From Fodinibius sp. Rm-B-1B1-1 (GTDB taxonomy: Bacteria; Bacteroidota; Rhodothermia; Balneolales; Balneolaceae): a DNA stretch of 64,000 bases. The notes under the pieces were generated by a model. That model did no database searches. It worked only from the letters and a program-made list of their open reading frames with translations, and was not told the origin of the DNA. This document shows positions 50,007 to 63,461 of this stretch, one piece after another. The position numbers were made by a program, and so were the translations under genes. How positions within the stretch are numbered: the stretch's first letter is position 1; every line of letters begins with the position of its first letter. The stretch is taken from contig NZ_JBCFYD010000001.1 in the NCBI RefSeq assembly GCF_038594945.1, positions 682,001 to 746,000 on the forward strand. The letters run 5' to 3'.

Positions 50007-50369
50007 TCATTTCTCCTTTTCTGATTTTAAAATACCTGCTAACAAGTTTATTAAATAGATTACAATTAAAAAGCCAAGGCTCATAAACATTGGCTCATAA
50101 GCCCCAATCTTGAAGGTAAATAAAATTAGGATTACAAGCCAAGGTGACAACATCCAAATTATGGTATTTATAACTTGCAGTTTATTAAAACTTTCGTCTC
50201 GAAAAAAGAAATGCAAAAAGACGAATATCCAAAAAATTACCATGTAAATATTCATCCATAGCCCAGAGGATAGAATATTAAAAAGGCCGACAAAGGCAGC
50301 TGCTGGGCCTGCCACTATAGCAGCCCCAAGCGCACCTTTAGATATAACTGTTTTTACCTTCTTATTCAT
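50007..50369 (-). CDS. Small four-helix membrane protein of unknown function
   Basis: 120 aa with about four hydrophobic segments (about 12-32, 38-52, 66-86, 92-113) and a charged C-terminus (KSEKEK). No family recognised. It follows the lipoprotein gene at 50409 by 39 bp on the same strand and shares its terminator, so the two are probably one unit. Size and topology would fit an immunity or export accessory protein, as inference only. Confidence 0.6.
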   Translation of the reverse strand: MNKKVKTVISKGALGAAIVAGPAAAFVGLFNILSSGLWMNIYMVIFWIFVFLHFFFRDESFNKLQVINTIIWMLSPWLVILILFTFKIGAYEPMFMSLGFLIVIYLINLLAGILKSEKEK

Positions 50370-50408
50370 AGTATATACTCACTTGAAAATTATATTCGAT
50401 ACTACTTA

Positions 50409-51254
50409 TCAATCGAACCATATCCAAGAAGCAAAACATCCCCAACCACAGCCTGTGTGTACACCAAGTGTCGTACTTAAACCTGCCAGGGCACCAAGAG
50501 GACCTGAAGACATAAAACCACCTGTAGAACCTAATAATGTAGTCGAGTAAGCAAACTGCCAACCAGAAAAAGTGTAGCCATAATTCGCCATACAATCCCA
50601 ATAGCAACTATTCATAGTTGGGGATTCACCAAGTTTCGGTACATCTGTATTATTCCAATTTTGCTTGGTGTAAGTTTGCGAAAAGAGAGTCTGACCACTT
50701 TGTGTTTCGAAAGTGACAGTTACTTCGGCTTGGTCAGCAAGTTGGGGATTAGCATCAATTTGAGCTACAGAATAATTTCCGTCGACAGTAACTACAATTG
50801 TCTTTTCAATAGAATTTGTAGTTTCATTGTAGCCTGATACAGTAGCTTTAACACGGGTATTATCACTATCATTAATTGGTGTTACCAATGTTTGTTGTCT
50901 AGTATCATTATCCTCACTGATTACAGCCTCGTCCATGTTTGGATCAAGCTTTTCAGGCTCTTGAAGATTGGCTGTATTATTATTTTCCTTTGAGGACTCA
51001 TTTAGTGAGTCTTTTAAAATGGAGGTAAGTTTCTGTTTCACCTCATCCGTTTTTGGTGAATTTGTATTCACATCATAAATCTGAGGAGTACTTTGGGTCG
51101 ACTCAGTAGTTTTTTGGGATGACTGAGTAAGTTCAGCAGTTATATTATCACCTTTTAAAGAAATTTCCTCTTCCTCTACATTGGTACTACAAGAAGTTAA
51201 AATTAATAAAGATATAGTAATTACCGTACTTATTGAATAGGTTAACTTTTGCAT
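50409..51254 (-). CDS. Lipoprotein with Cys/Gly-rich, bacteriocin-like C-terminal segment
   Basis: 281 aa. Lipoprotein signal ends LILTSCS (Cys22 predicted lipidated). Residues about 25-130 are polar and low in complexity (Ser/Thr/Asn/Gln/Glu). Residues about 135-200 look like a beta-sandwich (VKATVSGYNETTNSIEKTIV, ADQAEVTVTFETQSGQ). The last about 65 residues differ sharply: four Cys in two C-x3-C pairs (SCYWDCMAN; GCGWGCFASW) enclose a Gly/Ala/Ser/Leu-rich hydrophobic stretch (LGSTGGFMSSGPLGALAGLS). That tail resembles bacteriocin or pore-forming peptides in composition. I do not recognise the family. Confidence 0.6.
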   Translation of the reverse strand: MQKLTYSISTVITISLLILTSCSTNVEEEEISLKGDNITAELTQSSQKTTESTQSTPQIYDVNTNSPKTDEVKQKLTSILKDSLNESSKENNNTANLQEPEKLDPNMDEAVISEDNDTRQQTLVTPINDSDNTRVKATVSGYNETTNSIEKTIVVTVDGNYSVAQIDANPQLADQAEVTVTFETQSGQTLFSQTYTKQNWNNTDVPKLGESPTMNSCYWDCMANYGYTFSGWQFAYSTTLLGSTGGFMSSGPLGALAGLSTTLGVHTGCGWGCFASWIWFD

Positions 51255-51688: not shown

Positions 51689-52493
51689 TTAATTTTCTGA
51701 AAAATATTTAGTAGCCCATTTTCGGTTCACACTCCTTTCTAACTTGTTCTCCTCACACTCTTTTAGTTCCCAAAAGAAATTCAGACCGCTCCTATTTTCA
51801 ACTTCATTTATTGTAACAAGATGATCTAACAACGGAGAAGAATAGGGCGTATCTTGACTGTAAATGAATGCCCCCGTTTGAATCTTACTATTTTTTTAAT
51901 CGCTACAATTTTCCAGTACCCGTTTGGAATCTTATGGTCCTCATCGGCTTCCGGTAGAGATGGCATTTCTTTTTCATACAGTGGGCCGGTCATCACATAA
52001 ACCGAACGAATGGTCTCTTCTTCAAGAATTCCCCGAAGACGGGACTCTAAAACCCGCCAACTGCCGCTATTTAGATTAGCTTTTTGGGGAGTAATGTTGG
52101 AGAGATAATTGGTTTGATAAAAACTATCCCTACCATCCAAACCTGCCAAGGGAGCTTGGTGCCCCCGGTGAATATTCAACTTGCTATAGGCCCCCCTCGT
52201 AATCACTGGGCTCTAGGGTTTCTTCCTCTTCTAACCATGGATCAGATTCCCAGTCTCGCTCATCTTCTTGCCCGCTTGCAGTCTCTTTAGTTAGACGATA
52301 AGAAACCCAATCAGCAAATTTGGTTTGGTCGTTGCTGCTCATTGCATATAAATCACGGATAATAAGATCGTTAGAGGCTTACGTACCGATTGGATATCCC
52401 TTGATAAAATGCTTTGAATTGAATCTCGATGGGCTGAGCATTTACTTCAATTACGATGGATAGTAATAGCAATAATAAAATCGACTTTTTCAT
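51689..52493 (-). pseudogene. Secreted NUC1 (DNA/RNA non-specific) endonuclease broken by three frameshifts
   Basis: Reading across frames gives a nearly full-length enzyme. A signal peptide MKKSILLLLLLSIVIEVNAQ starts at 52493. After a shift near 52395 comes IIRDLYAMSSNDQTKFADWV and DPWLEEEETLEPSDY. A run of six G (about 52186-52191), one too many, shifts into GAYSKLNIHRGHQAPLA and NITPQKANLNSGSWRVLE. A seven-A run one base short (about 51892-51898) shifts into AFIYSQDTPYSSPLLDHLVT and NRKWATKYFSEN, ending at 51689. The catalytic DRGH is HRGH here. Two of the shifts are in homopolymers, so sequencing error is an alternative to decay. Confidence 0.82.
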
Positions 52494-52535
52494 AGCAAGT
52501 ATAGTTTTATCCTAAAAATATTGGTCTAGTAATTA

Positions 52536-54572
52536 TCAATATTCCCACTCTAAGTCTTCATCAGGGTTAGGACATAAAGGAACAACCTCCAATCCATATC
52601 CATGTAGAGTAGGAGTGTGCTTCCCAGCCAGTTCTACTAAAACAGGTTCCGTATTGAGGGTCCATTTTAAGTTCAATTTGTTTTCACTTTTATCAGGCTT
52701 AACTATTCTCCGATCCAGCTCATCTCCATCTTTATCTTTAAGAATAAATTCAAATTGAGGCGACTCTTTACTTTTCCAAACCACATCCCTTTTAATTATT
52801 AACCGGGTGTGTGATGATTTCTTCAATTCGATATCCTGGACTTCTCTGTCACCATCTAAAGAAACAAAACTAAGTGAGACTTCATCCAAAAGCTCAGGAT
52901 GATCATCGGTTGTAACTATCTCTCCCGTAATTTTAATACTGACCTGGGGCTGTTCCTCTTCATTTGTACTGCCCCCCTTATTTAAATTTATTGGCCTCAG
53001 ATCAATATTTGGTCTTATTTTTTTAGCGATTCTTGAAACATCTGAAGACCTTAGTGGGTGAATTTTAGGTTTAGAAGAAGACTCCTTGTTCTCCTTTTCT
53101 GTATTAATAGGTATAGCATGAACCTGAGGTTGAACGAGGGTTGCATTAAGAGAGTGAAATGAGCTTTTTTGGACATCGTTAGATTCTAATTGTTCATCAT
53201 TCTTATCAAAACCCTTAGTCATCGTTAGTATCCGGTTTTTGGGCAGAGATGTGGAACGCTTTGTTTCTTGATCAAGGAGTTGTAATGATTCAGAGAGCCC
53301 AGCATGTTCTGCTGCGTCAGTAAGTTCACGTTCTTCCCCAACTTTTTCTAAAGTTTTATCAGGCAGCACCTGCAAAGTTGGCATTACCATTCTGTTATCT
53401 ATGTTGCGCTTATCGGAATCACCAAAGTAAGCAGTTGCTTCTCCTTCAAATACCACTTCGGCATCCCGAATAAATATGATGTTTTTTAATAACGTAGGTA
53501 AGCGGCCACTTCCTTCTCCATCAGAGAGTAATTCTTGATCTGATTCAAGGCGCCAAAAACCTTGGTCGAAAAAATCGGGATCAAGCCAGTCACGTAAAAT
53601 GCTGCACTTCAGAAATTCAAAGGAGATATGTCGGATATTTTGTGCTGTCCTTTCAATCTGTTTTTCTGGAATGCCAACTACATCTTTAGCTATTGTAGAA
53701 TCAATATTATCCCTTATTTCATCCGCTTGCAACTTAACTCGTTGCCAGTGGACATCGCTATCATTGTTAAATAATGGAGAAATAGGTGCGATTTGAACTT
53801 TGAAATAGCTCAAGCCAGCAGCATCTATACGCTTCTTTTCACCTGCTTTGAATTGATCCAGCAACCTTTTACGTTCGTCTTCAAACCCTGCTGAAGCTGA
53901 CTCTTCTTTTATGATACGAAATGCTTCTTCTATCTCATTCTTACTACCGATACCAATCCACTCTGCTTCTAAACGATCAAGCTTCGCTTCTAAATCCTTT
54001 CTTTCACTCGTATCTTCGTCTATGGATTGTAATTTAGCCCGTATTTCTTGGATGTGTTTTTCATATTCAAGGTACTTTTTTAATGCCTCACTTCGCTCTC
54101 CATCTTGAAATAATAAGGCCATTGCTTTTTTATACCGGTCGGATGAAGCTGCTACCTTTCCTGCAAAAATAGCCTCTTCCAATGTATCTCCATAGACTTC
54201 GTTTATTGAGTTAAGAGAAGATACAGGTGGAGTCAATGACTTTAGAGGAAGTATCGGGTTAAGTAGGCGGTCGTGAACGAAGGCGTTAATCTCTTCTAGT
54301 TTATGATCTGCTCTAGTAATTGTTTCTTCTTCTGAATTACCAGACTCATCAATTATTTCTATGTCCCGCATGATTGCTTCCAACGGGAATAGTTCCGCTT
54401 CCATGGGATACCCCACTGGGGGATAGGAACAAATCGTAAAAAACTTCTTACCCCCCAGTTGTTGGCTCCCGTGAGTATTCGGATTAGCGATTGGCATACC
54501 AATATTCTTTGCTATTGAAGTAGCCATCGCTGCCCTACAAATTGCTATTCGCTCCTGTTTAATCATACTCAT
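52536..54572 (-). CDS. Large unknown protein, paralogue B of the 52.5-57.0 kb operon
   Basis: 678 aa, no signal peptide or membrane helix. A charged coiled coil spans about 160-245. Residues 316-334 (ISFEFLKCSILRDWLDPDF), 349-373 (LSDGEG...LPTLLKNIIFIRDAEV) and 656-671 (LHGYGLEVVPLCPNPD) align in order with blocks in the upstream gene, so the two are diverged paralogues. Between the second and third blocks it carries about 280 extra residues: a polar linker (about 375-540) and a beta-rich region (about 545-645) that may be an Ig-like domain. Third gene of the operon, 24 bp after its paralogue. Function unknown. Confidence 0.7.
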   Translation of the reverse strand: MSMIKQERIAICRAAMATSIAKNIGMPIANPNTHGSQQLGGKKFFTICSYPPVGYPMEAELFPLEAIMRDIEIIDESGNSEEETITRADHKLEEINAFVHDRLLNPILPLKSLTPPVSSLNSINEVYGDTLEEAIFAGKVAASSDRYKKAMALLFQDGERSEALKKYLEYEKHIQEIRAKLQSIDEDTSERKDLEAKLDRLEAEWIGIGSKNEIEEAFRIIKEESASAGFEDERKRLLDQFKAGEKKRIDAAGLSYFKVQIAPISPLFNNDSDVHWQRVKLQADEIRDNIDSTIAKDVVGIPEKQIERTAQNIRHISFEFLKCSILRDWLDPDFFDQGFWRLESDQELLSDGEGSGRLPTLLKNIIFIRDAEVVFEGEATAYFGDSDKRNIDNRMVMPTLQVLPDKTLEKVGEERELTDAAEHAGLSESLQLLDQETKRSTSLPKNRILTMTKGFDKNDEQLESNDVQKSSFHSLNATLVQPQVHAIPINTEKENKESSSKPKIHPLRSSDVSRIAKKIRPNIDLRPINLNKGGSTNEEEQPQVSIKITGEIVTTDDHPELLDEVSLSFVSLDGDREVQDIELKKSSHTRLIIKRDVVWKSKESPQFEFILKDKDGDELDRRIVKPDKSENKLNLKWTLNTEPVLVELAGKHTPTLHGYGLEVVPLCPNPDEDLEWEY

Positions 54573-54596
54573 AAACTTATATTTACCAGAATAAAG

Positions 54597-56255
54597 TTAG
54601 ATCCAATCATCTTTATCTGGATAACTTTCAAAATCAGGATTAGGAGCTTTTCCAAGAAAACGGCTGGCAAATCCGACTAAAAAGGTTCCGTCCATTTTTA
54701 TCTGTCCAAATTCGCCTTCACTCTCGTATTCAGTAGAAGTGGTTTTATTCGTATGTTCTCCACTGGCACCAAACCCGAGGATTGAAATCCCTCCACCGGC
54801 TTCGAATTTATCATACTCACGTTTAAATGTACTTTTGTCCATATCAGATTTAAGTGTGAGATTCCTTACGAAATAGGCGGTCATCGGGATTAGAGGCATT
54901 TTCCCTTCTTCAGGGGGATTTTTACCGTCGGAAAGAGTCATTATACCGGTCATTGCATCCAATGATTCATCTTTGTTTGTCGGATGTACCATGGTGTATG
55001 CAGGCGACTCCAAAAAAGCCACATCAAACCACGGTCGATCAATAATTCCCTGGACAATTTCAAATTCTATTTTAAAATTGCTGTTAAAGAATTTCTGTTT
55101 AAAATCGCTACTAACCTTTTCGGCACTGGCTGTTGCAAAAAGAGGGACTGAAGGTATAATGCCTGTCCCACCACCAGACGATGAAGACTTATTGCTGAAC
55201 GTTTTCCTGGAGACCTTAGATTTTTCGACTGTCACATTCATCATTGATTTAGCATCCAGTATACCATTTGGTCGTAGTGCAGTATAATAGGCACTTTCAG
55301 TAAGCAGCGACGCCCCTTGATCTTCTGATACAAAGACTGAAGCGGTCAGCTTGTTCGATTCGAATCGTTCCTTTAGGTCATCTATGTACTGTGGCATTCC
55401 GGAACGTGAAAGTTGAGCAATTCTGGCTTGCACTGCCTCGACTTGGTTCTTCTTGCCTTGGGTCTCCCATCGATTCTTGGCCGATTGTAATTTCTGTTTT
55501 AGTAGTTCGGTTCGTTCTCCGGCATTTGGATCATTAGGAGAAATATTTTCAAGTTTTTCGAGCACACTTAACTTTGTTTGTTCGTATCGGTTTTGAAGTG
55601 CACGATAAATTTTCATAATCCTTGTTGGTTCAGCCAACTTATCTGGACTCTGTACAAAATCTCCAGCATCTACGGCTTCTTCCCCAAGAAGATTGTCGAG
55701 GTTGACATCATCACCCTCACCGTTGTTACTATTCTCGTCTTCGAGAGATCCGAGAAGATCCTCATCTTCGGACTCTGGATCAGCTTTTTTAGGTTCTTTA
55801 TATAACGCAGAACGTAGTTTTTCGAGACGCTTTTTTTCTTCCTCGGTCATTCCATTGTCAATTACCATGCAGTTTTCAAGGACTGTTCTATAAATTTTTG
55901 ATACGGAACGACCACTGGATATTAGTGCATTCAAGTCAACTACAACACTATTTTCATCTGATTCTTCGTCGGATGCGTCCATTACATTACCGTCAAGGGA
56001 AGGAACATAATCAACCATCGCAGCAAAGTTGACTGCAGCTCGTTGCATGTCGTTGACAGTAAAACGAACCTTACCTTCCTCGTCCTCATTGTCGACTTCT
56101 TCAGGACTCGACCCAAGTTTCATGAATGAAGCCAGCTCCGGTCCAAATGGTATTGGTGGTAGAAAGTATTGAAATTCTACATTTTTCGGTGGGTCACGCT
56201 CAATTATCGATTGAATATTTCCATATAATGAGTCAATCAGTTCAGAGGTATCCAT
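54597..56255 (-). CDS. Unknown protein, paralogue A of the 52.5-57.0 kb operon
   Basis: 552 aa, acidic, no signal peptide. An N-terminal region (about 1-155) has FTVNDMQRAAVNFAAMVDYV. An acidic linker (about 157-205) leads to a coiled coil (about 213-300). A Ser/Gly-rich stretch (about 353-375) precedes the conserved blocks IEFEIVQGIIDRPWFDVAF (396-414), LSDG (441-444), LIPMTAYFVRNLTLK (455-469), a glycine-rich GGGISILGFGASGE (487-500) and FLVGFASRFLGKAPNPD (525-541). These recur, diverged, in the downstream gene. I have an impression of similar uncharacterised proteins elsewhere ending in a PG-QIIG-type strand, but cannot confirm it. 51 bp after the hydrolase gene. Confidence 0.7.
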   Translation of the reverse strand: MDTSELIDSLYGNIQSIIERDPPKNVEFQYFLPPIPFGPELASFMKLGSSPEEVDNEDEEGKVRFTVNDMQRAAVNFAAMVDYVPSLDGNVMDASDEESDENSVVVDLNALISSGRSVSKIYRTVLENCMVIDNGMTEEEKKRLEKLRSALYKEPKKADPESEDEDLLGSLEDENSNNGEGDDVNLDNLLGEEAVDAGDFVQSPDKLAEPTRIMKIYRALQNRYEQTKLSVLEKLENISPNDPNAGERTELLKQKLQSAKNRWETQGKKNQVEAVQARIAQLSRSGMPQYIDDLKERFESNKLTASVFVSEDQGASLLTESAYYTALRPNGILDAKSMMNVTVEKSKVSRKTFSNKSSSSGGGTGIIPSVPLFATASAEKVSSDFKQKFFNSNFKIEFEIVQGIIDRPWFDVAFLESPAYTMVHPTNKDESLDAMTGIMTLSDGKNPPEEGKMPLIPMTAYFVRNLTLKSDMDKSTFKREYDKFEAGGGISILGFGASGEHTNKTTSTEYESEGEFGQIKMDGTFLVGFASRFLGKAPNPDFESYPDKDDWI

Positions 56256-56306: not shown

Positions 56307-56975
56307 CTATTGAGAATTGATTAGCTCCAGTAGGTATTCTCGAGTTACTTCGTCGAATACACCCGTAATAGCTAAATCTGAATTGGTAGATTGAAACTGC
56401 TCCAATGTAGATTCAGTTCTTGGACCAAAAATGCCATCAGAAGTGCCTACATCGAAACAGGCTTGTTTTAAAGCATCTTGAAGTTGAACAACTGCTTGTC
56501 CTGAATCTCCCCGCTCCAAGACCTGATCCGGGAGAGATATTTCATTTTCCGGTTCTAGTCTCCGAAAGCCAAGCAACTTCTCAGCTGACTTAGCCGTAAT
56601 TGAAACAGAATCATCTTGGTTGCCACCTAAGGTGTATATCCTTGATTGATCGTTTGAATAGCCCAAGAACAATCCAACATGGCCTTTATGCGACTCAGGA
56701 CTTTCTCTCCAATATACTACAACATCACCAGGCTCCGGGTTTTCTACTGCAAATCCTACATTTAACCAAGACCTAGCAGACCCTGAACCTGATCGTTCAA
56801 ATTCTGCCTTCATAGCTACCCAATTCATGAAGATGCTACACCAAGGAGTTTCATCATCTTCAATCCAGGTATGGCCTATCTCTTCTGCATACTGAAGGAT
56901 TCGTTCGTTATCAGTACTTCCGCTTATCTCAGTTACACCAAGCTCTCCTGTGGCCACTTTGATCAGTTTATCCAT
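56307..56975 (-). CDS. Peptidoglycan hydrolase: TIGR02594-like cysteine peptidase/amidase with PG-binding domain
   Basis: 222 aa. The N-terminal CHAP/NlpC-like domain (about 1-140) has the catalytic Cys46 in TPWCSIFMNWVAMK, His99 in HKGHVGLFLGY and a polar residue in TLGGNQDDSVS (Asn119), the TIGR02594 pattern. The C-terminal PG_binding_1 domain (about 150-222) reads RGDSGQAVVQLQDALKQA and DGIFGPRTESTLEQFQ. There is no signal peptide, as for endolysins and toxins delivered by other means. It heads a three-gene unit with two unknown paralogous proteins. Such hydrolases occur in phages, contractile injection systems and T6SS loci. Confidence 0.82.
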   Translation of the reverse strand: MDKLIKVATGELGVTEISGSTDNERILQYAEEIGHTWIEDDETPWCSIFMNWVAMKAEFERSGSGSARSWLNVGFAVENPEPGDVVVYWRESPESHKGHVGLFLGYSNDQSRIYTLGGNQDDSVSITAKSAEKLLGFRRLEPENEISLPDQVLERGDSGQAVVQLQDALKQACFDVGTSDGIFGPRTESTLEQFQSTNSDLAITGVFDEVTREYLLELINSQ

Positions 56976-58638: not shown

Positions 58639-60000
58639 CTAAAAGTAACCTTGGCTTTCATTAGTATCTTTGGACTTACCTTCTTTCTCCTTTGGCAAAT
58701 CATAAATATCTACAATTTTAGCAGCTTCAACTAAAGTTGGAATATCAATCATATTATTTGCTGAGTTTTTTAGTCTATTTTGATCAAAATAGTTTTCATT
58801 AGTAAAAATCTTTATAAAACCTGTTCCTAAATTTATATCAAGTGAACTGGGATTTTTTCTAAATCGGCCATTCTTTTTAACTCTCCTATATAGTTTTGGC
58901 ATTTCTATTTTTAATATTGATAAAAATAAAATTTCTTTTGAAAGTTTTTTTCCTTTATCAGGATTACTGCTAAGAGAAATTGTATAAAGTGTTAGAATTC
59001 TTTCTAATGATCTTGGTGTTAAATTTGTTTTAGGTAGTAAGGCTTTTATCATTTCAGATAATAATTTTTCATGCCTAACATGCTCAGGTATAACAAACAG
59101 ATCTAATAGATCAGCTATAAATAATTGTATATTTCCTTCATCATCACTACCTCTTAGTTCCTTAAACTTTGGTAGATTCGTTTCTATGTGGACAAATTTC
59201 TGTAAATATACATAAGCATCTTCTGCATTTACTCCATAAGCATTAGTAATTATTTCAACTAATTGTTCTCTATTAATAGCCAATACAAAATTCACATGAT
59301 CTATATCAAACAGGTGCTTAATTTTTTCCAGCACTTCAATTGCAAAACTCGGCCTACATCGGTCTAACTCATCAACAAAGAATACTATTTTCTTGTTGTT
59401 GTCTCTATTCTCTAAAAGAGCTTTGAGTTTATTATGGAATTCCTGAATCAAATCTGCTTTTTCGAAATAAGCATCGAATTTAGAATCCACTAATTCTTTA
59501 CTGCTTCTCTCAATTGCTTTCTCTTTTTGCTCTTTATTCTCTTTATATTTGCCTGTAATCCATTCCATCAAGCTATCTGCCGCAAGTACCCCTCCTGTAC
59601 TAACACGAATAGCTGTAGATGCACTCATTTTTGCTAACTCAGTTCCAAGATTAACTGCAGCTTCTTTGTAGTCACTAGTCTCTTTCTTCTTTTCTTCATC
59701 AAAATGCTTTTCTAATACTTTTTGAATGGTAACAGCTATAGAAATAAAAGTATCAGATGTAAAATCATTTTGGAAAGCATCATAATAAATTGGAATAAAA
59801 TCATCATTAATTCGTAATTGTGCTTCCCATTCTTTTATGAATGTTGTTTTCCCTTCTCCCCAATCACCATTTATCGTTAAAACTAAAGAGTCCTCTGTAT
59901 TTGAAAGTAATCGTGTCAAATTCTGAGCAAAATCATTTCTGTTAAAGTAATCATAATTGCCCCCCTCTCTTTCGTAGCGTGGCTTTATTCTATGTTTCAT
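58639..60000 (-). CDS. KAP-family P-loop NTPase
   Basis: 453 aa. Walker A GDWGEGKTT (45-53), Walker B KKIVFFVDELDRC (203-215) with the DELDRCRPSFAIEVLEKIKH segment diagnostic for KAP NTPases, and VNFVLAINREQL with a sensor Asn/Arg. A small hydrophobic segment (about 127-147) lies between Walker A and B, where KAP proteins often have membrane helices; here it is weak. KAP NTPases are often membrane-linked and found in defence islands. No partner gene is adjacent. The DNA is visibly more AT-rich than the core genome, suggesting recent acquisition. Confidence 0.88.
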   Translation of the reverse strand: MKHRIKPRYEREGGNYDYFNRNDFAQNLTRLLSNTEDSLVLTINGDWGEGKTTFIKEWEAQLRINDDFIPIYYDAFQNDFTSDTFISIAVTIQKVLEKHFDEEKKKETSDYKEAAVNLGTELAKMSASTAIRVSTGGVLAADSLMEWITGKYKENKEQKEKAIERSSKELVDSKFDAYFEKADLIQEFHNKLKALLENRDNNKKIVFFVDELDRCRPSFAIEVLEKIKHLFDIDHVNFVLAINREQLVEIITNAYGVNAEDAYVYLQKFVHIETNLPKFKELRGSDDEGNIQLFIADLLDLFVIPEHVRHEKLLSEMIKALLPKTNLTPRSLERILTLYTISLSSNPDKGKKLSKEILFLSILKIEMPKLYRRVKKNGRFRKNPSSLDINLGTGFIKIFTNENYFDQNRLKNSANNMIDIPTLVEAAKIVDIYDLPKEKEGKSKDTNESQGYF

Positions 60001-60107
60001 AACAGTTCCCTTTTTTTATGGTATTATCATCAGCATGATAAAAAATTTAATCATCCTTACAATCTTTGTGTTCATCCTATTTTTATTACATTCCATTTCA
60101 TCATTAT

Positions 60108-60341
60108 CCTGGGGAACGGTTGGGTAAAATACAGATCAACAAAGAGCAGTACTTCGGCATGGTCCCAGAGAAGGCCTGGAATTTCTATATCGGCGGCTAT
60201 CAACCAGCCGAAAAATGGCTTAAAGCCCGTCGGGACCGGGAGCTAAGCTTTGAGGAAATTCAGCACTATCAAAAAATTATTGTGGCTCTGATGGAGACAG
60301 ATAGGATTATGGATGATATTGATGAGATTGGGATAGAATAA
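60108..60341 (+). pseudogene. C-terminal tail of a type ISP restriction-modification enzyme
   Basis: About 75 codons match the end of type ISP single-chain RM enzymes: IQINKEQYFGMVPEKAWNFY, IGGYQPAEKWLKARRDRELS, FEEIQHYQKIIVALMETDRI. The rest of the enzyme (nuclease, helicase, methylase, most of the specificity domain) is absent. Just upstream, 60035-60127 encodes an unrelated 30-residue hydrophobic peptide with a signal-peptide look in another frame, so a deletion junction probably lies near 60105. Confidence 0.8.
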
Positions 60342-60356
60342 CTTTTAGTTTATTAA

Positions 60357-61481
60357 CTAAATATTTCCAACGATTAATTTGTATTGCTTGCGCCAAGGCA
60401 ATGGTACGGGTGATCTGATCTCTTGCTCAAGATGCTTTTGTAGTATTTCTTTGAACCTAACTTCCGCCTTATCGATAACCTTTTCCTTTTTTTTATCCGT
60501 AACTTTCAATTCGGAAACAGATGGACAAGTAATTTCAAACTGTTTAATACTTTTATTCCAAGACAGTTTGAAACAGAATCCGAACATTGGAAAATATTCT
60601 TCACTTTTTTTAGAACTATTATTTTCAAAATTAATAACTCCAAGTACCTGAATAACATCAAGTGCAGGTACAAGAATATTAGCATTTAAAATGCTGCCAT
60701 TTTTATCTAATGTAGCAATCTGTGGTTGACCACCAGATTCAAACACATCTTCAACTAAGTCTACAATCCAGTTTCCAGCCTCTTGTAGTTTAGAAAGTTC
60801 AGCTAAATAAATTCTTATATTTATCTCCTTCAAAATCCTTGTAACTTCTGATGCAAAGCCATATACATCAATTCTATCTCCTTCTTTTTTCAAATCATTT
60901 TTAACATGCTTCCATCCATCAAAGTCTTGCAAAAGTCTTTTTGGACTAAATTGTATGTTAATTTTATGCGAATCAATATGGCCAGGAATTCTTTTTGAAC
61001 TCGAATAATTTGATATAAAGTCTATTCCCATTCCACAATGTTGCACATAATTTCGCAGTTGATAAAAAAATCTATATGCGAAAAAATCATCATATGCTTC
61101 ACTAGTTATGGAATCAAACCTTTCTGCTTCTTTACTGTTATCCCCATAACTCCTTTTTAACCTTGTTTCAGTATGATCAAGATAAAGACGTCCAGAGGCC
61201 AAGAAGTTCAATAGCTTACGATTTACTTCATCGTTGAGTTTTAGAATTTCTAAACGTTTGATAGATAAATCATGATTTTGTTTTTCAATTTTAGAAACAT
61301 AATTATCTAAAGCAGATGCATTAGACTCAACAAGTGGCAATATTCCTTGCGTACGCTCAAAATCACGCAATAACCCATTCAATTTCTTGAACTTTTGAAA
61401 CTCCTCTCTCGATATAGATTTATAAGGCTTTGTTAATCCATTTTTCTTTATTAAAACATATGGTTCTAGCTGATCTCCCAT
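60357..61481 (-). CDS. Unknown protein with RX4H (HEPN-like) motif, partner of the OLD-family ATPase
   Basis: 374 aa, soluble. Residues about 55-150 are helical and include RFFYQLRNYVQHCG, in which Arg143-x4-His148 fits the R-X4-6-H catalytic motif of HEPN RNases in a helix-rich setting. Residues about 170-340 look alpha/beta with a strand-rich end (YFPMFGFCFKLSWNKSIKQF). No family is recognised. It starts 18 bp after the ATPase gene on the same strand, so the two form an operon. An effector/toxin role controlled by the ATPase is the working idea. Not proven. Confidence 0.65.
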   Translation of the reverse strand: MGDQLEPYVLIKKNGLTKPYKSISREEFQKFKKLNGLLRDFERTQGILPLVESNASALDNYVSKIEKQNHDLSIKRLEILKLNDEVNRKLLNFLASGRLYLDHTETRLKRSYGDNSKEAERFDSITSEAYDDFFAYRFFYQLRNYVQHCGMGIDFISNYSSSKRIPGHIDSHKINIQFSPKRLLQDFDGWKHVKNDLKKEGDRIDVYGFASEVTRILKEINIRIYLAELSKLQEAGNWIVDLVEDVFESGGQPQIATLDKNGSILNANILVPALDVIQVLGVINFENNSSKKSEEYFPMFGFCFKLSWNKSIKQFEITCPSVSELKVTDKKKEKVIDKAEVRFKEILQKHLEQEIRSPVPLPWRKQYKLIVGNI

Positions 61482-61499
61482 ATCTTGTTTTTTACCCTC

Positions 61500-63461
61500 C
61501 TATTTCAAAAGGGTATTTAAAGTAGAAAAAGCATCTTCAAATCGATTTAGTGTATCATCACTAAGCTTATCTTTCAGCTCTTCACTATTTTCAGCAAAAT
61601 ATCGAGCAGGTCGGTAATGATTAAAATTTCCATTATCGGATAGATTATCATCAAAATATTTTTCTATTCTTAAAACAGTCCTTGGGATATTGTCATTTAG
61701 ATCATCACTGGAGATCGGGGTATCTAATTCTTGACCAAATTCCTCATTCACTAACTCTAGATAAAAATTTGAATTAAACATGTCTTCCAAGTCAGCTTCC
61801 TCTTGGTCAACAAAATCCGCAAATGTAAAAACCTGCTGCTTTTTTAATAGTTTCTTTTTATAAAGGTTTTCTATTGCCTGCTGATCTTTCTTTTGAAAAT
61901 CAATAAGTGTGGCAATATTTAGACCACTCTTTGCTCCTATCAGAGAAACAAAAGTTGAAACCTTATCAGAACCTCCAACAGGCGTAATGGTCCATTGTGC
62001 ATCCAATGTTTCCATACCTAAACTCTCTAAAATACCGTTCATGGTTTGCAGGACAAGAAGATCAGATACCCCTTCAACAATCAAATTATTTGGTCCAACA
62101 AATAAAGTTTGGTGAATTTCATATCCGAGAGCTCCTTGAAGTGGAAACAAACTGTCATCCGAAGCTTCTAAAACGTCAGTTAATACTTTTGTACCCTGTT
62201 CTTCTACTGGAAGCACTTCATCTGCCTTAAGACTCTGATCTTCAACAATCCTCACTCTTTCAAATTTCTGGGCATCTACCATGAATGGAGAATGAGTAGT
62301 ATAAATCAGTTGATGATCATCTTTCAGATCTGTTTCAAAATAGTTAATTAAATCTTCCTGTGCCTTTGCATGTAAAAACAAACCCGGCTCATCTAATAGC
62401 AATACTAATGATTCATGTTTCTTTTTTAAGTCAGAATACCAAGCAAGAAATGAAAAGAACCAAACAAATCCCCTTGATCTGGTTCCTAGCAAAGTACTAA
62501 CCCAATGTTTTTTATCGTAAACTTCGGCCCAAATATTTGTTCCATTTTGCATTCCATCGGGATCATTAGGTTGTCCTGGCCGAACATCAAACTGCATTTG
62601 TAAATGATCGTTTTGAGACCAGTATTCCACAATTTTTTTGGTAAGATGATTCCCTGCTCCCTGTAATCTGTTTTTAAGTTTTTGAGTTCGTCCTGGATTC
62701 AAAAGATCATCTAAATCTAATCTTGCTAAATTAATTAAACCTAAAAGTGGATAATCAGATTCTTTTAATTGTCTTGATTCTTTCCTCTGTTTCAGATTCT
62801 GAATGTTAGCAAGACCATTCATCTGATAATATTGGTCGAAGTACAAAAACTTTGGTACACGGTCGCTTAGAATATTGTTATATATGTAATACTCTAAGCT
62901 GTTATCTATAATTGTGTTTAGAATATTTTTTAATTCTGAATGTTCATTGTTCTCGCTAGACTCATCTAACAGTGCTTTAATTTCCTTAGGACTATCTTTC
63001 TTCTTTAAGTTCTTTGATAGTTCACTATCTATATCAAAATTGTTGATTAAACTTCTTATTGATGATTTTAGATTAACATTCAGTTGGAACGTCCTTTCAT
63101 TATCATACCCTTTGAAGAGTTTTAGAGAAGTGCCTTTCCTAATTGCTGTATCCCCAAACAGCTCACTAACTGCATTTAAATCACCTTGATCAAGCTCATA
63201 AGTTGCCTCTACAACTTTTGAGTGATTTCCACCCTCTTCTATTTTCTGTCTATAATCCTCAACGTCCCATCTTGGATAATCATCTGTTACACTATAAGTG
63301 TTTTTGGATTGCTCAATTGGATTTAATCGATATAACGCATCAAGAAGTGCGGTTTTTCCGGCTTCGTTCTTACCCACCAAACATGTTATATCATTAATTA
63401 CGAACTCATTTGAATCTCTGATGCTCTGAAAGTTATATACTTGTGCTTTGGTCAGTTTCAT
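61500..63461 (-). CDS. OLD-family ATPase with C-terminal TOPRIM-like domain
   Basis: 653 aa. N-terminal SMC/OLD-type ATPase: Walker A GKNEAGKTALL (30-40), signature-like region SRGFVWFFSFLAWYSDL, Walker B LVLLLDEPGLFLHA (about 347-360) and the switch His in YTTHSPFMV (about 380). The C-terminal part is TOPRIM-like: NLIVEGVSDLLVLQ (about 455) with the conserved Glu, then ATLIDFQKKD and EADLEDMF. The usual DxD appears as DxQ (IDFQ), which may weaken metal binding. OLD, GajA, RloA, AbiL and PARIS AriA are relatives used in anti-phage defence. First gene of a two-gene unit. Confidence 0.85.
   Translation of the reverse strand: MKLTKAQVYNFQSIRDSNEFVINDITCLVGKNEAGKTALLDALYRLNPIEQSKNTYSVTDDYPRWDVEDYRQKIEEGGNHSKVVEATYELDQGDLNAVSELFGDTAIRKGTSLKLFKGYDNERTFQLNVNLKSSIRSLINNFDIDSELSKNLKKKDSPKEIKALLDESSENNEHSELKNILNTIIDNSLEYYIYNNILSDRVPKFLYFDQYYQMNGLANIQNLKQRKESRQLKESDYPLLGLINLARLDLDDLLNPGRTQKLKNRLQGAGNHLTKKIVEYWSQNDHLQMQFDVRPGQPNDPDGMQNGTNIWAEVYDKKHWVSTLLGTRSRGFVWFFSFLAWYSDLKKKHESLVLLLDEPGLFLHAKAQEDLINYFETDLKDDHQLIYTTHSPFMVDAQKFERVRIVEDQSLKADEVLPVEEQGTKVLTDVLEASDDSLFPLQGALGYEIHQTLFVGPNNLIVEGVSDLLVLQTMNGILESLGMETLDAQWTITPVGGSDKVSTFVSLIGAKSGLNIATLIDFQKKDQQAIENLYKKKLLKKQQVFTFADFVDQEEADLEDMFNSNFYLELVNEEFGQELDTPISSDDLNDNIPRTVLRIEKYFDDNLSDNGNFNHYRPARYFAENSEELKDKLSDDTLNRFEDAFSTLNTLLK

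What the first reader, a model, noticed from the sequence alone, without database searches (positions are those of the whole stretch)
52536..56255. The two adjacent unknown genes are paralogues sharing four ordered blocks
Reading both proteins side by side: (i) coiled coil at 213-300 of A and 160-245 of B; (ii) IEFEIVQGIIDRPWFDVAF versus ISFEFLKCSILRDWLDPDF; (iii) LSDG..PLIPMTAYFVRNLTLK versus LSDG..LPTLLKNIIFIRDAEV; (iv) FLVGFASRFLGKAPNPD versus LHGYGLEVVPLCPNPD at the C-terminus. B has about 280 extra residues inserted before block iv, including a possible Ig-like domain. A tandem duplication with domain insertion suggests a hetero-oligomer or baseplate/sheath-like pair.
Basis: seen in the sequence. 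Interest (0 to 1): 0.6.

Follow-up and report, generated by a model that had tools for sequence, protein, structure and literature searches.

The report
Paired proteins resembling pore-formers
Two neighbouring bacterial genes of unknown function are very old duplicates that travel together through many bacteria and an archaeal assembly; one keeps two long hairpins with greasy glycine-rich tips like those with which perforins and gasdermins pierce membranes, the other has lost them, so the pair is probably a two-part membrane-attack module rather than a phage tail part.

Summary
A (54597-56255, -) and B (52536-54572, -) are paralogues: weak but collinear as single sequences, unambiguous as family profiles (hhalign probability 100, E 9e-54, 374 columns). 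All four blocks recur family-wide. The adjacent pair recurs at about 25 other loci: Bacteroidota, Nitrospira, Rubrivivax, Desulfuromonas, Verrucomicrobiota, a Methanosarcina assembly and a Rhizobium plasmid. No Pfam, NCBIfam, PHROGs or PADLOC family matches.

The baseplate/sheath reading is not supported. The AlphaFold model of A (low-moderate confidence) is a helical bundle plus two very long beta-hairpins; its best PDB matches are MACPF, perforin, pleurotolysin and gasdermin pores (best E 7e-7; TM only about 0.2). The hairpin tips are charge-poor glycine/hydrophobic stretches in A (24/29, 20/29) but not in B (1/22, 0/22). B replaces the hairpins by short helices, a disordered linker and an Ig/CBM-like domain, and diverges faster. 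Neighbours are often peptidoglycan hydrolases, proteases or phospholipases.

Best reading: a two-component pore-forming-like module, A membrane-inserting, B a tip-less partner. MACPF and CDC-like signatures are absent, so it is no known member of those families. Nothing has been shown experimentally.

The parts
54597..56255 (-). Gene A, 552 aa: tip-bearing, predicted membrane-inserting subunit
55356..55622 (-).
   Evidence: AF2 helices 212-237, 245-266, 269-285, 287-300; aligned to B 162-244
55038..55241 (-). A residues 339-406: long beta-hairpin 1 (second arm ends in block ii)
   Evidence: strands 339-366 and 372-406; region length 65-73 in 29 members
55122..55181 (-). A residues 359-378: glycine/hydrophobic tip of hairpin 1
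   Evidence: column statistics; 24/29 A versus 1/22 B
54894..55037 (-). A residues 407-454: conserved RPWF...SDG linker between the hairpins (end of block ii, start of block iii)
54657..54893 (-). A residues 455-533: long beta-hairpin 2 (starts in block iii, ends in block iv)
   Evidence: strands 455-492 and 495-533; region length 63-73 in 29 members
54753..54803 (-). A residues 485-501: glycine/hydrophobic tip of hairpin 2 (family motif GG.VGWGPF..GG.Y)
   Evidence: 20/29 A versus 0/22 B
52536..54572 (-). Gene B, 678 aa: tip-less paralogue, predicted partner subunit
53841..54089 (-). B residues 162-244: helical bundle matching block i of A
53595..53744 (-). B residues 277-326: remnant of hairpin 1, arms 277-282 and 313-326 joined by short helices 283-311
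   Evidence: no glycine-rich tip
53424..53495 (-). B residues 360-383: strand matching block iii
52971..53405 (-). B residues 390-534: low-confidence, probably disordered linker in the place of hairpin 2
   Evidence: pLDDT below 50 throughout; length of this region 45-346 among B's
52632..52946 (-). B residues 543-647: Ig/CBM-like beta-sandwich
   Evidence: Foldseek CBM20/CBM41/filamin E 2e-3 to 5e-2
52557..52610 (-). B residues 655-672: last core strand and PNPD motif (block iv)
56307..56975 (-). 222-aa TIGR02594/CHAP amidase with PG_binding_1 domain, 51 bp upstream of A and co-directional; no obvious signal peptide
   Evidence: TIGR02594 1e-32, over its cut-off; CHAP and PG_binding_1 over cut-off; same neighbour in L010, L040, L042

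Best explanation
A and B are a two-component pore-forming-like module. A has a helical bundle plus a core that extends two long beta-hairpins; each hairpin turn is capped by about 16-20 charge-poor glycine/hydrophobic residues, enough to cross a bilayer as 8-10 residues per strand. By analogy with MACPF, CDC, CDC-like and gasdermin pores, several A subunits would assemble and insert these hairpins as a beta-barrel. B keeps the same core but has lost both membrane-inserting arms and carries a disordered linker and an Ig/CBM-like domain instead; it would co-assemble with A as the recognition, initiating or capping subunit. The variable hydrolase genes beside the pair (in the window a CHAP/TIGR02594 peptidoglycan amidase; elsewhere muramidases, caspase, trypsin, papain-like C70 peptidase, PI-PLC, patatin) would act with it: amidases, muramidases and lipases reach their substrate through or beside the damaged membrane, proteases may activate it. 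I commit to an antagonistic role against other cells, with B giving target choice; a role at the producer's own membrane (gasdermin/holin-like) is nearly as likely. SHOWN: paralogy, paired conservation, conserved tips in A and their absence from B, faster divergence of B, identity of neighbours. PREDICTED: fold and hairpins. INFERRED: oligomerisation, membrane insertion, role of B and of the hydrolases, target.
For: Paralogy. Adjacent pair at about 25 other loci; A and B separate near the base of the tree with matching sub-groups. AF2 of A: strands 339-366/372-406 and 455-492/495-533, i.e. strand-hairpin-strand-linker-strand-hairpin-strand as in MACPF/gasdermin cores. Foldseek PDB: all 37 matches at E up to 1e-3 are MACPF, complement, perforin, pleurotolysin, gasdermin or aegerolysin-L pore entries, e.g. 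9do6 OlyA/PlyB 6.9e-7, perforin-2 1.9e-6, bacterial gasdermin 6.6e-5. Tip test: A 24/29 and 20/29, B 1/22 and 0/22; near-zero charge with alternating Gly/hydrophobic columns. Distant single-gene relatives also show tip-like motifs; S. meliloti has one tip-bearing gene between two tip-less ones, each starting with an apparent signal peptide. B less conserved than A in 229 of 231 comparisons, mean identity 0.22 versus 0.37. Hydrolase neighbours. Precedent: two-component CDC-like toxins of Bacteroidota from adjacent paralogous genes, a short pore-former and a long initiating partner (PMC11169675).
Against: The model of A is only low-moderate confidence (pLDDT 63.8, pTM 0.54; tips below 50) and TM-scores to pores are about 0.2. 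Long strands alone give background matches: levivirus maturation proteins at about 1e-4 to 1e-3 in the viral library. No sequence-level link to MACPF (hhalign prob 1.1; no Pfam match) and no MACPF or YGR signature. Most A and B lack a signal peptide by hydropathy, so an outside target needs lysis or an unknown export route. The B model matches no pore protein. Some pairs (e.g. L009) have no hydrolase neighbour, and neighbour enrichment was not tested against a background.
Confidence: 0.42

Rival explanations
1. Self-directed lysis or abortive infection: A opens the producer's own cytoplasmic membrane after a trigger (gasdermin- or holin-like) and the signal-less peptidoglycan hydrolase next door then reaches the wall, as an endolysin does through a holin. 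B is a tip-less regulator or plug.
For: Most A and B and, by reading its start, the window's amidase lack a signal peptide. The amidase matches endolysin PHROGs. Neighbours include caspase plus trypsin (L012), patatin close to a defence effector model (L053), TIR proteins (L049, L061), and the window locus lies beside KAP and OLD-like genes. Caspase-like proteases accompany bacterial gasdermins (PMC9079055).
Against: S. meliloti members start with apparent Sec signals; Nitrospira hemopexin neighbours appear exported; B's variable CBM/Ig-like domain suits surface recognition better. No PADLOC model matches A or B.
Confidence: 0.27
2. Structural or appendage role: A and B build a fibre, baseplate or surface layer; the long hairpins are stalk elements and the glycine-rich tips pack against each other, not in a membrane.
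For: Long hairpins also occur in fibres and tail proteins; the amidase matches a tail-lysozyme PHROG; tandem unequal paralogues suit hetero-oligomers.
Against: No PHROGs match to A or B, no phage or viral-contig relatives, no tail genes near any locus read. Charge-free Gly/hydrophobic alternation of membrane-crossing length on two arms is hard to explain by packing alone.
Confidence: 0.15
3. Non-pore membrane or lipid-binding pair: A dips its hairpin tips into a membrane as an anchor and presents B and the neighbouring enzymes at a surface, without forming a barrel.
For: Tips alone would suffice for anchoring; neighbours often carry binding repeats (hemopexin, LGFP, OmpA-like, PG-binding).
Against: Two rigidly length-conserved hairpins (65-73 and 63-73 residues) with the topology of known barrel-formers exceed what an anchor needs; fold matches are to pore states.
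Confidence: 0.12

Closest known systems
Two-component CDC-like (CDCL) toxins of Bacteroidota (PMC11169675, PMC7527733, PMC11952106)
   Same: Adjacent paralogous genes of unequal length; one member is the main pore-former with two hairpins per subunit, the other an initiating partner with an extra domain; common in Bacteroidota; protease-activated.
   Different: No YGR motif in any A or B; EaCDCL pore is only a weak Foldseek match (9ccp, E 0.011); here B seems to have lost the inserting arms, whereas the long CDCL is modelled with full hairpins (PMC11952106); most members lack a signal peptide; hydrolase neighbours.
MACPF/perforin family, e.g. Pleurotolysin A/B, complement MAC, perforin-2
   Same: Best structural matches of A; strand-hairpin-strand-linker-strand-hairpin-strand order; two-part assembly in pleurotolysin.
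   Different: No PF01823 match, signature absent, hhalign with Bacteroidota MACPF proteins prob 1.1.
Bacterial gasdermins
   Same: Two hairpins per subunit; Foldseek matches 8sl0 and 9a84; often encoded beside caspase-like and trypsin-like proteases (PMC9079055), as in L012.
   Different: Gasdermin chains matched are about 230-250 residues, A is 450-550 with a helical N-terminal half; no Pfam match; tandem tip-less paralogue not a known gasdermin feature (own knowledge).
Holin/endolysin and T6SS amidase effectors (TIGR02594)
   Same: A peptidoglycan hydrolase paired with something that gets it across a membrane; TIGR02594 proteins are T6SS-linked effectors in Stenotrophomonas (PMC13055248).
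   Different: No T6SS or phage genes seen near the pair; A is a predicted beta-barrel former, not a holin.

Membership tests
MACPF (PF01823) | MACPF signature (Y/W)G(T/S)(H/I)(F/Y)...GG | tested here: not met
   0 of 29 A and 0 of 22 B, strict or relaxed
MACPF (PF01823) | Profile-level similarity to MACPF proteins | tested here: not met
   No Pfam match up to E 5 in 29 members; hhalign prob 1.1 against 10 Bacteroidota MACPF proteins
MACPF/CDC/gasdermin superfamily (fold) | Four-stranded core with two extended hairpins | tested here: inconclusive
   AF2 model and 37 PDB matches E up to 1e-3, all pore proteins, but pLDDT 64 and TM about 0.2; strand order in the sheet could not be read
MACPF/CDC/gasdermin superfamily (fold) | Pore formation in a membrane | not testable with these tools
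   needs liposome assay or cryo-EM
Two-component CDC-like toxins (CDCL) | F/Y-F/Y-Xn-YGR motif | tested here: not met
   YGR in 0 of 29 A and 0 of 22 B (motif from PMC7527733)
Two-component CDC-like toxins (CDCL) | Adjacent paralogous genes, one long and one short | tested here: met
   A 552 aa and B 678 aa, 24 bp apart; repeated at about 25 loci
Phage baseplate/sheath proteins | Match to phage structural families or a phage-like neighbourhood | tested here: not met
   No PHROGs match, none in phage records or viral contigs
Bacterial gasdermin | Sequence-family membership and about 230-270-residue architecture with protease-removed C-terminal peptide | tested here: not met
   No Pfam match; length 446-575; fold match only; cleavage not testable
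TIGR02594 amidase (neighbour gene) | NCBIfam model above cut-off | tested here: met
   113.3 bits, cut-off 70.55

The most novel reading that the evidence does not exclude
An unrecognised, widely transferred two-subunit system of bacteria and possibly archaea in which a perforin/gasdermin-like pore subunit and a tip-less paralogue work with exchangeable hydrolases (amidases, muramidases, caspases, trypsins, phospholipases): a perforin-plus-enzyme weapon or self-lysis device outside every known pore-forming family.
Probability: 0.3. Interest if true: 0.85.

Novelty: new variant of a known kind. Interest (0 to 1): 0.62.

Why it matters
Two-hairpin pore-formers link complement, perforin, bacterial toxins and gasdermin cell death, and how they arose and became two-component is an open question. 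If A is one, this is a large undescribed branch in which an old duplication split the work into an inserting and a non-inserting subunit, with enzymes encoded next to it. It offers a concrete test: natural A versus B differ in the tips that should matter. It would also turn hypothetical genes in many genomes into a testable antagonism or defence module.

Tried and rejected
Phage tail/baseplate: rejected. Known family by HMM: none in Pfam, NCBIfam, PHROGs or PADLOC for A or B, none in PDB sequences (for A; for the A profile; weak unrelated matches for B). MACPF or CDCL membership: signatures absent, no profile link. Recent local duplication: rejected, since A and B separate near the base of the tree across phyla; L013 and L060 pairs are placed as separate duplications, but on long branches. 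Viral-structure Foldseek gave only levivirus maturation proteins, taken as the background for long strands. Literature on DUF6603 (neighbour in L058) gave nothing. First genome scan with the 7-sequence profile failed for lack of conserved stretches. A8/A6 model of B gave no pore match. Co-complex prediction A:B and superposition of the two models could not be run: no multimer tool and no coordinates.
Full report
CHECK OF THE OBSERVATION. The two ORFs lie at the stated coordinates on the minus strand (A 54597-56255, 552 aa; B 52536-54572, 678 aa), 24 bp apart, with a 222-aa gene 51 bp upstream in the same direction. As single sequences the similarity is weak: collinear BLASTP pieces covering blocks i and ii+iii, E 0.013 and 0.016; a Smith-Waterman score reached by 3 of 1000 local-window shuffles. 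Homologues resolve it. The first genome search gave four more Bacteroidota-phylum genomes with a second gene of B type next to A and one plasmid copy of A. Profiles of the two families align with hhalign probability 99.8 and E 1.2e-28, and with larger alignments probability 100 and E 8.8e-54 over 374 columns. The A profile finds B's and the B profile finds A's in independent genomes. The four blocks are therefore real and family-wide: i, a helical bundle with W..GxK...E; ii, strand plus RPWF; iii, SDG...P.YPT..IFVRNL; iv, IGF.C..LP.SPNPD.

DISTRIBUTION. A genome-collection scan with three A's returned 21 named loci. Merging these with the other searches, and dropping two re-finds, the adjacent pair is present at about 25 loci besides the window: Gramella, Salegentibacter, Lacinutrix (B broken into several frames), Sphingobacterium (B split), Chryseobacterium, Chitinophaga, Pedobacter, Bacteroidales and other Bacteroidota, four Nitrospira assemblies, Rubrivivax, Desulfuromonas, a Verrucomicrobiota MAG, a Methanosarcina MAG (could be mis-binned), and a Rhizobium plasmid. 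Parabacteroides (L035) and an Acuticoccus plasmid (L014) have A alone; an S. meliloti accessory plasmid has three tandem paralogues. It is rare: 8 of 297 phylum genomes and 6 of 395 in one class. In a tree 20 of 22 B's form one group (98/94) and most A's another, with the same sub-groups on both sides, so the duplication predates the spread and the genes mostly move as a pair. B changes faster: A is the more similar protein in 229 of 231 comparisons, mean identity 0.37 versus 0.22.

STRUCTURE. AlphaFold2 of A on 26 homologues (pLDDT 63.8, pTM 0.54) gives N-terminal helices, a bundle at 212-300, and two very long hairpins (339-366/372-406; 455-492/495-533). Foldseek against the PDB returned 37 matches at E up to 1e-3, all of them MACPF, complement, perforin, pleurotolysin, aegerolysin-L or gasdermin pore entries. 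TM-scores are about 0.2 and long strands alone reach 3e-5 to 1e-3 in the viral library, so this is a pointer, not proof. AlphaFold2 of B (pLDDT 66.5) keeps the helices and the four core strands, but hairpin 1 is reduced to short helices (283-311) and hairpin 2 is replaced by a disordered stretch (390-534) and a beta-sandwich (543-647) resembling CBM20/CBM41/Ig domains weakly. B's best matches contain no pore protein.

THE TIPS. Independent of the model, alignment columns show that both hairpin turns of A are charge-poor with alternating glycine and hydrophobic residues (WSAGGGFNIGLFSIGGSAGG; GGGxVGWGPFxxGGxY). With a fixed criterion (16 residues, at most 1 charge, at least 4 Gly) 24 and 20 of 29 A's pass, against 1 and 0 of 22 B's. 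The lengths of the two hairpin regions are nearly fixed in A (65-73 and 63-73) and free in B (hairpin-2 region 45-346). In S. meliloti only the middle of three paralogues has both tips; distant relatives L036-L038 also show tip-like stretches by eye.

NEIGHBOURS. TIGR02594/CHAP amidase upstream in the window, Gramella, Salegentibacter and Lacinutrix, and downstream in L011; N-acetylmuramidase in L011 (Pfam) and, by similarity of reading, L012; PG_binding+CHAP in L054; Peptidase_C70 in Pedobacter and Chitinophaga; caspase and trypsin in L012; PI-PLC in Parabacteroides; patatin in Verrucomicrobiota; metallophosphatase in Desulfuromonas; hemopexin-repeat proteins in Gramella, Nitrospira, Bacteroidales; LGFP repeats in Chryseobacterium. 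Some pairs have none of these. I did not test enrichment against a background.

MECHANISM. Most likely, A inserts hairpins into a membrane as an oligomer and B joins as the non-inserting partner. CDC-like toxins of Bacteroidota are the closest working precedent: adjacent paralogues, a short pore-former and a long initiator, protease-activated (PMC11169675). Whether the membrane is a rival's or the producer's own is open. For an outside target: signal peptides in S. meliloti, exported neighbours, B's variable glycan-binding-like domain. For the inside: no signal peptide on most A, B and the amidase, caspase/trypsin/patatin/TIR neighbours, and adjacency of the window locus to KAP and OLD-like genes. 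I put the outward reading slightly ahead.

MEMBERSHIP. The MACPF signature and the CDC/CDCL YGR motif are absent and profile comparison with MACPF proteins fails. The family is therefore not filed under MACPF, CDCL or gasdermin; it is predicted to work like them.

VERDICT. Observation confirmed; duplication and insertion confirmed; baseplate/sheath reading not supported; a new two-component pore-forming-like family is the best explanation at about 0.4 for the whole mechanism.

Noticed in passing
window 51826-52530 (-): Downstream of B lies a DNA/RNA non-specific endonuclease (PF01223, 1e-20) whose N-terminal half is in another frame, with stops: a broken gene.
   Followed up: partly
window 58639-63461 (-): Defence-like block: KAP P-loop ATPase (PADLOC PDC-S20, 1e-80), an unmatched 374-aa protein, and an OLD/AriA-like ATPase-TOPRIM protein.
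   Followed up: partly
window 50007-51254 (-): A 281-aa putative lipoprotein with a Cys/Gly/Trp-rich C-terminal tail next to a 120-aa probable membrane protein; no family match of note.
   Followed up: no
L036:9106-12826 (+): Three tandem genes; the first is a distant A relative with tip-like stretches, the next two look like shorter relatives without them: the arm-bearing/armless pattern may recur outside the main family.
   Followed up: partly
L061:2817-6793 (+), S. meliloti plasmid accessoryA: Three tandem paralogues with apparent signal peptides, only the middle one tip-bearing; TIR-domain genes (ThsB-like) lie about 4 kb away.
   Followed up: partly
L012:8861-9214 (+): A 117-aa gene just upstream of A encodes only the helical-bundle part of A: a partial duplicate or a small regulator.
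   Followed up: no
L042:11528-13021 (+): In Lacinutrix neustonica B is split over three reading frames while A next to it is one long frame; in L047 (Sphingobacterium) B is split in two.
   Followed up: no
L058:1889-11077 (+): Rumen Bacteroidia pair with an enlarged 1071-aa B, followed by a 1913-aa DUF6603 protein (PF20248, 2e-86); no paper in the library mentions DUF6603.
   Followed up: partly
L010:13532-14854 (+): Gramella gene combining four hemopexin repeats with a C-terminal region that looks caspase-like by eye, two genes downstream of B.
   Followed up: no
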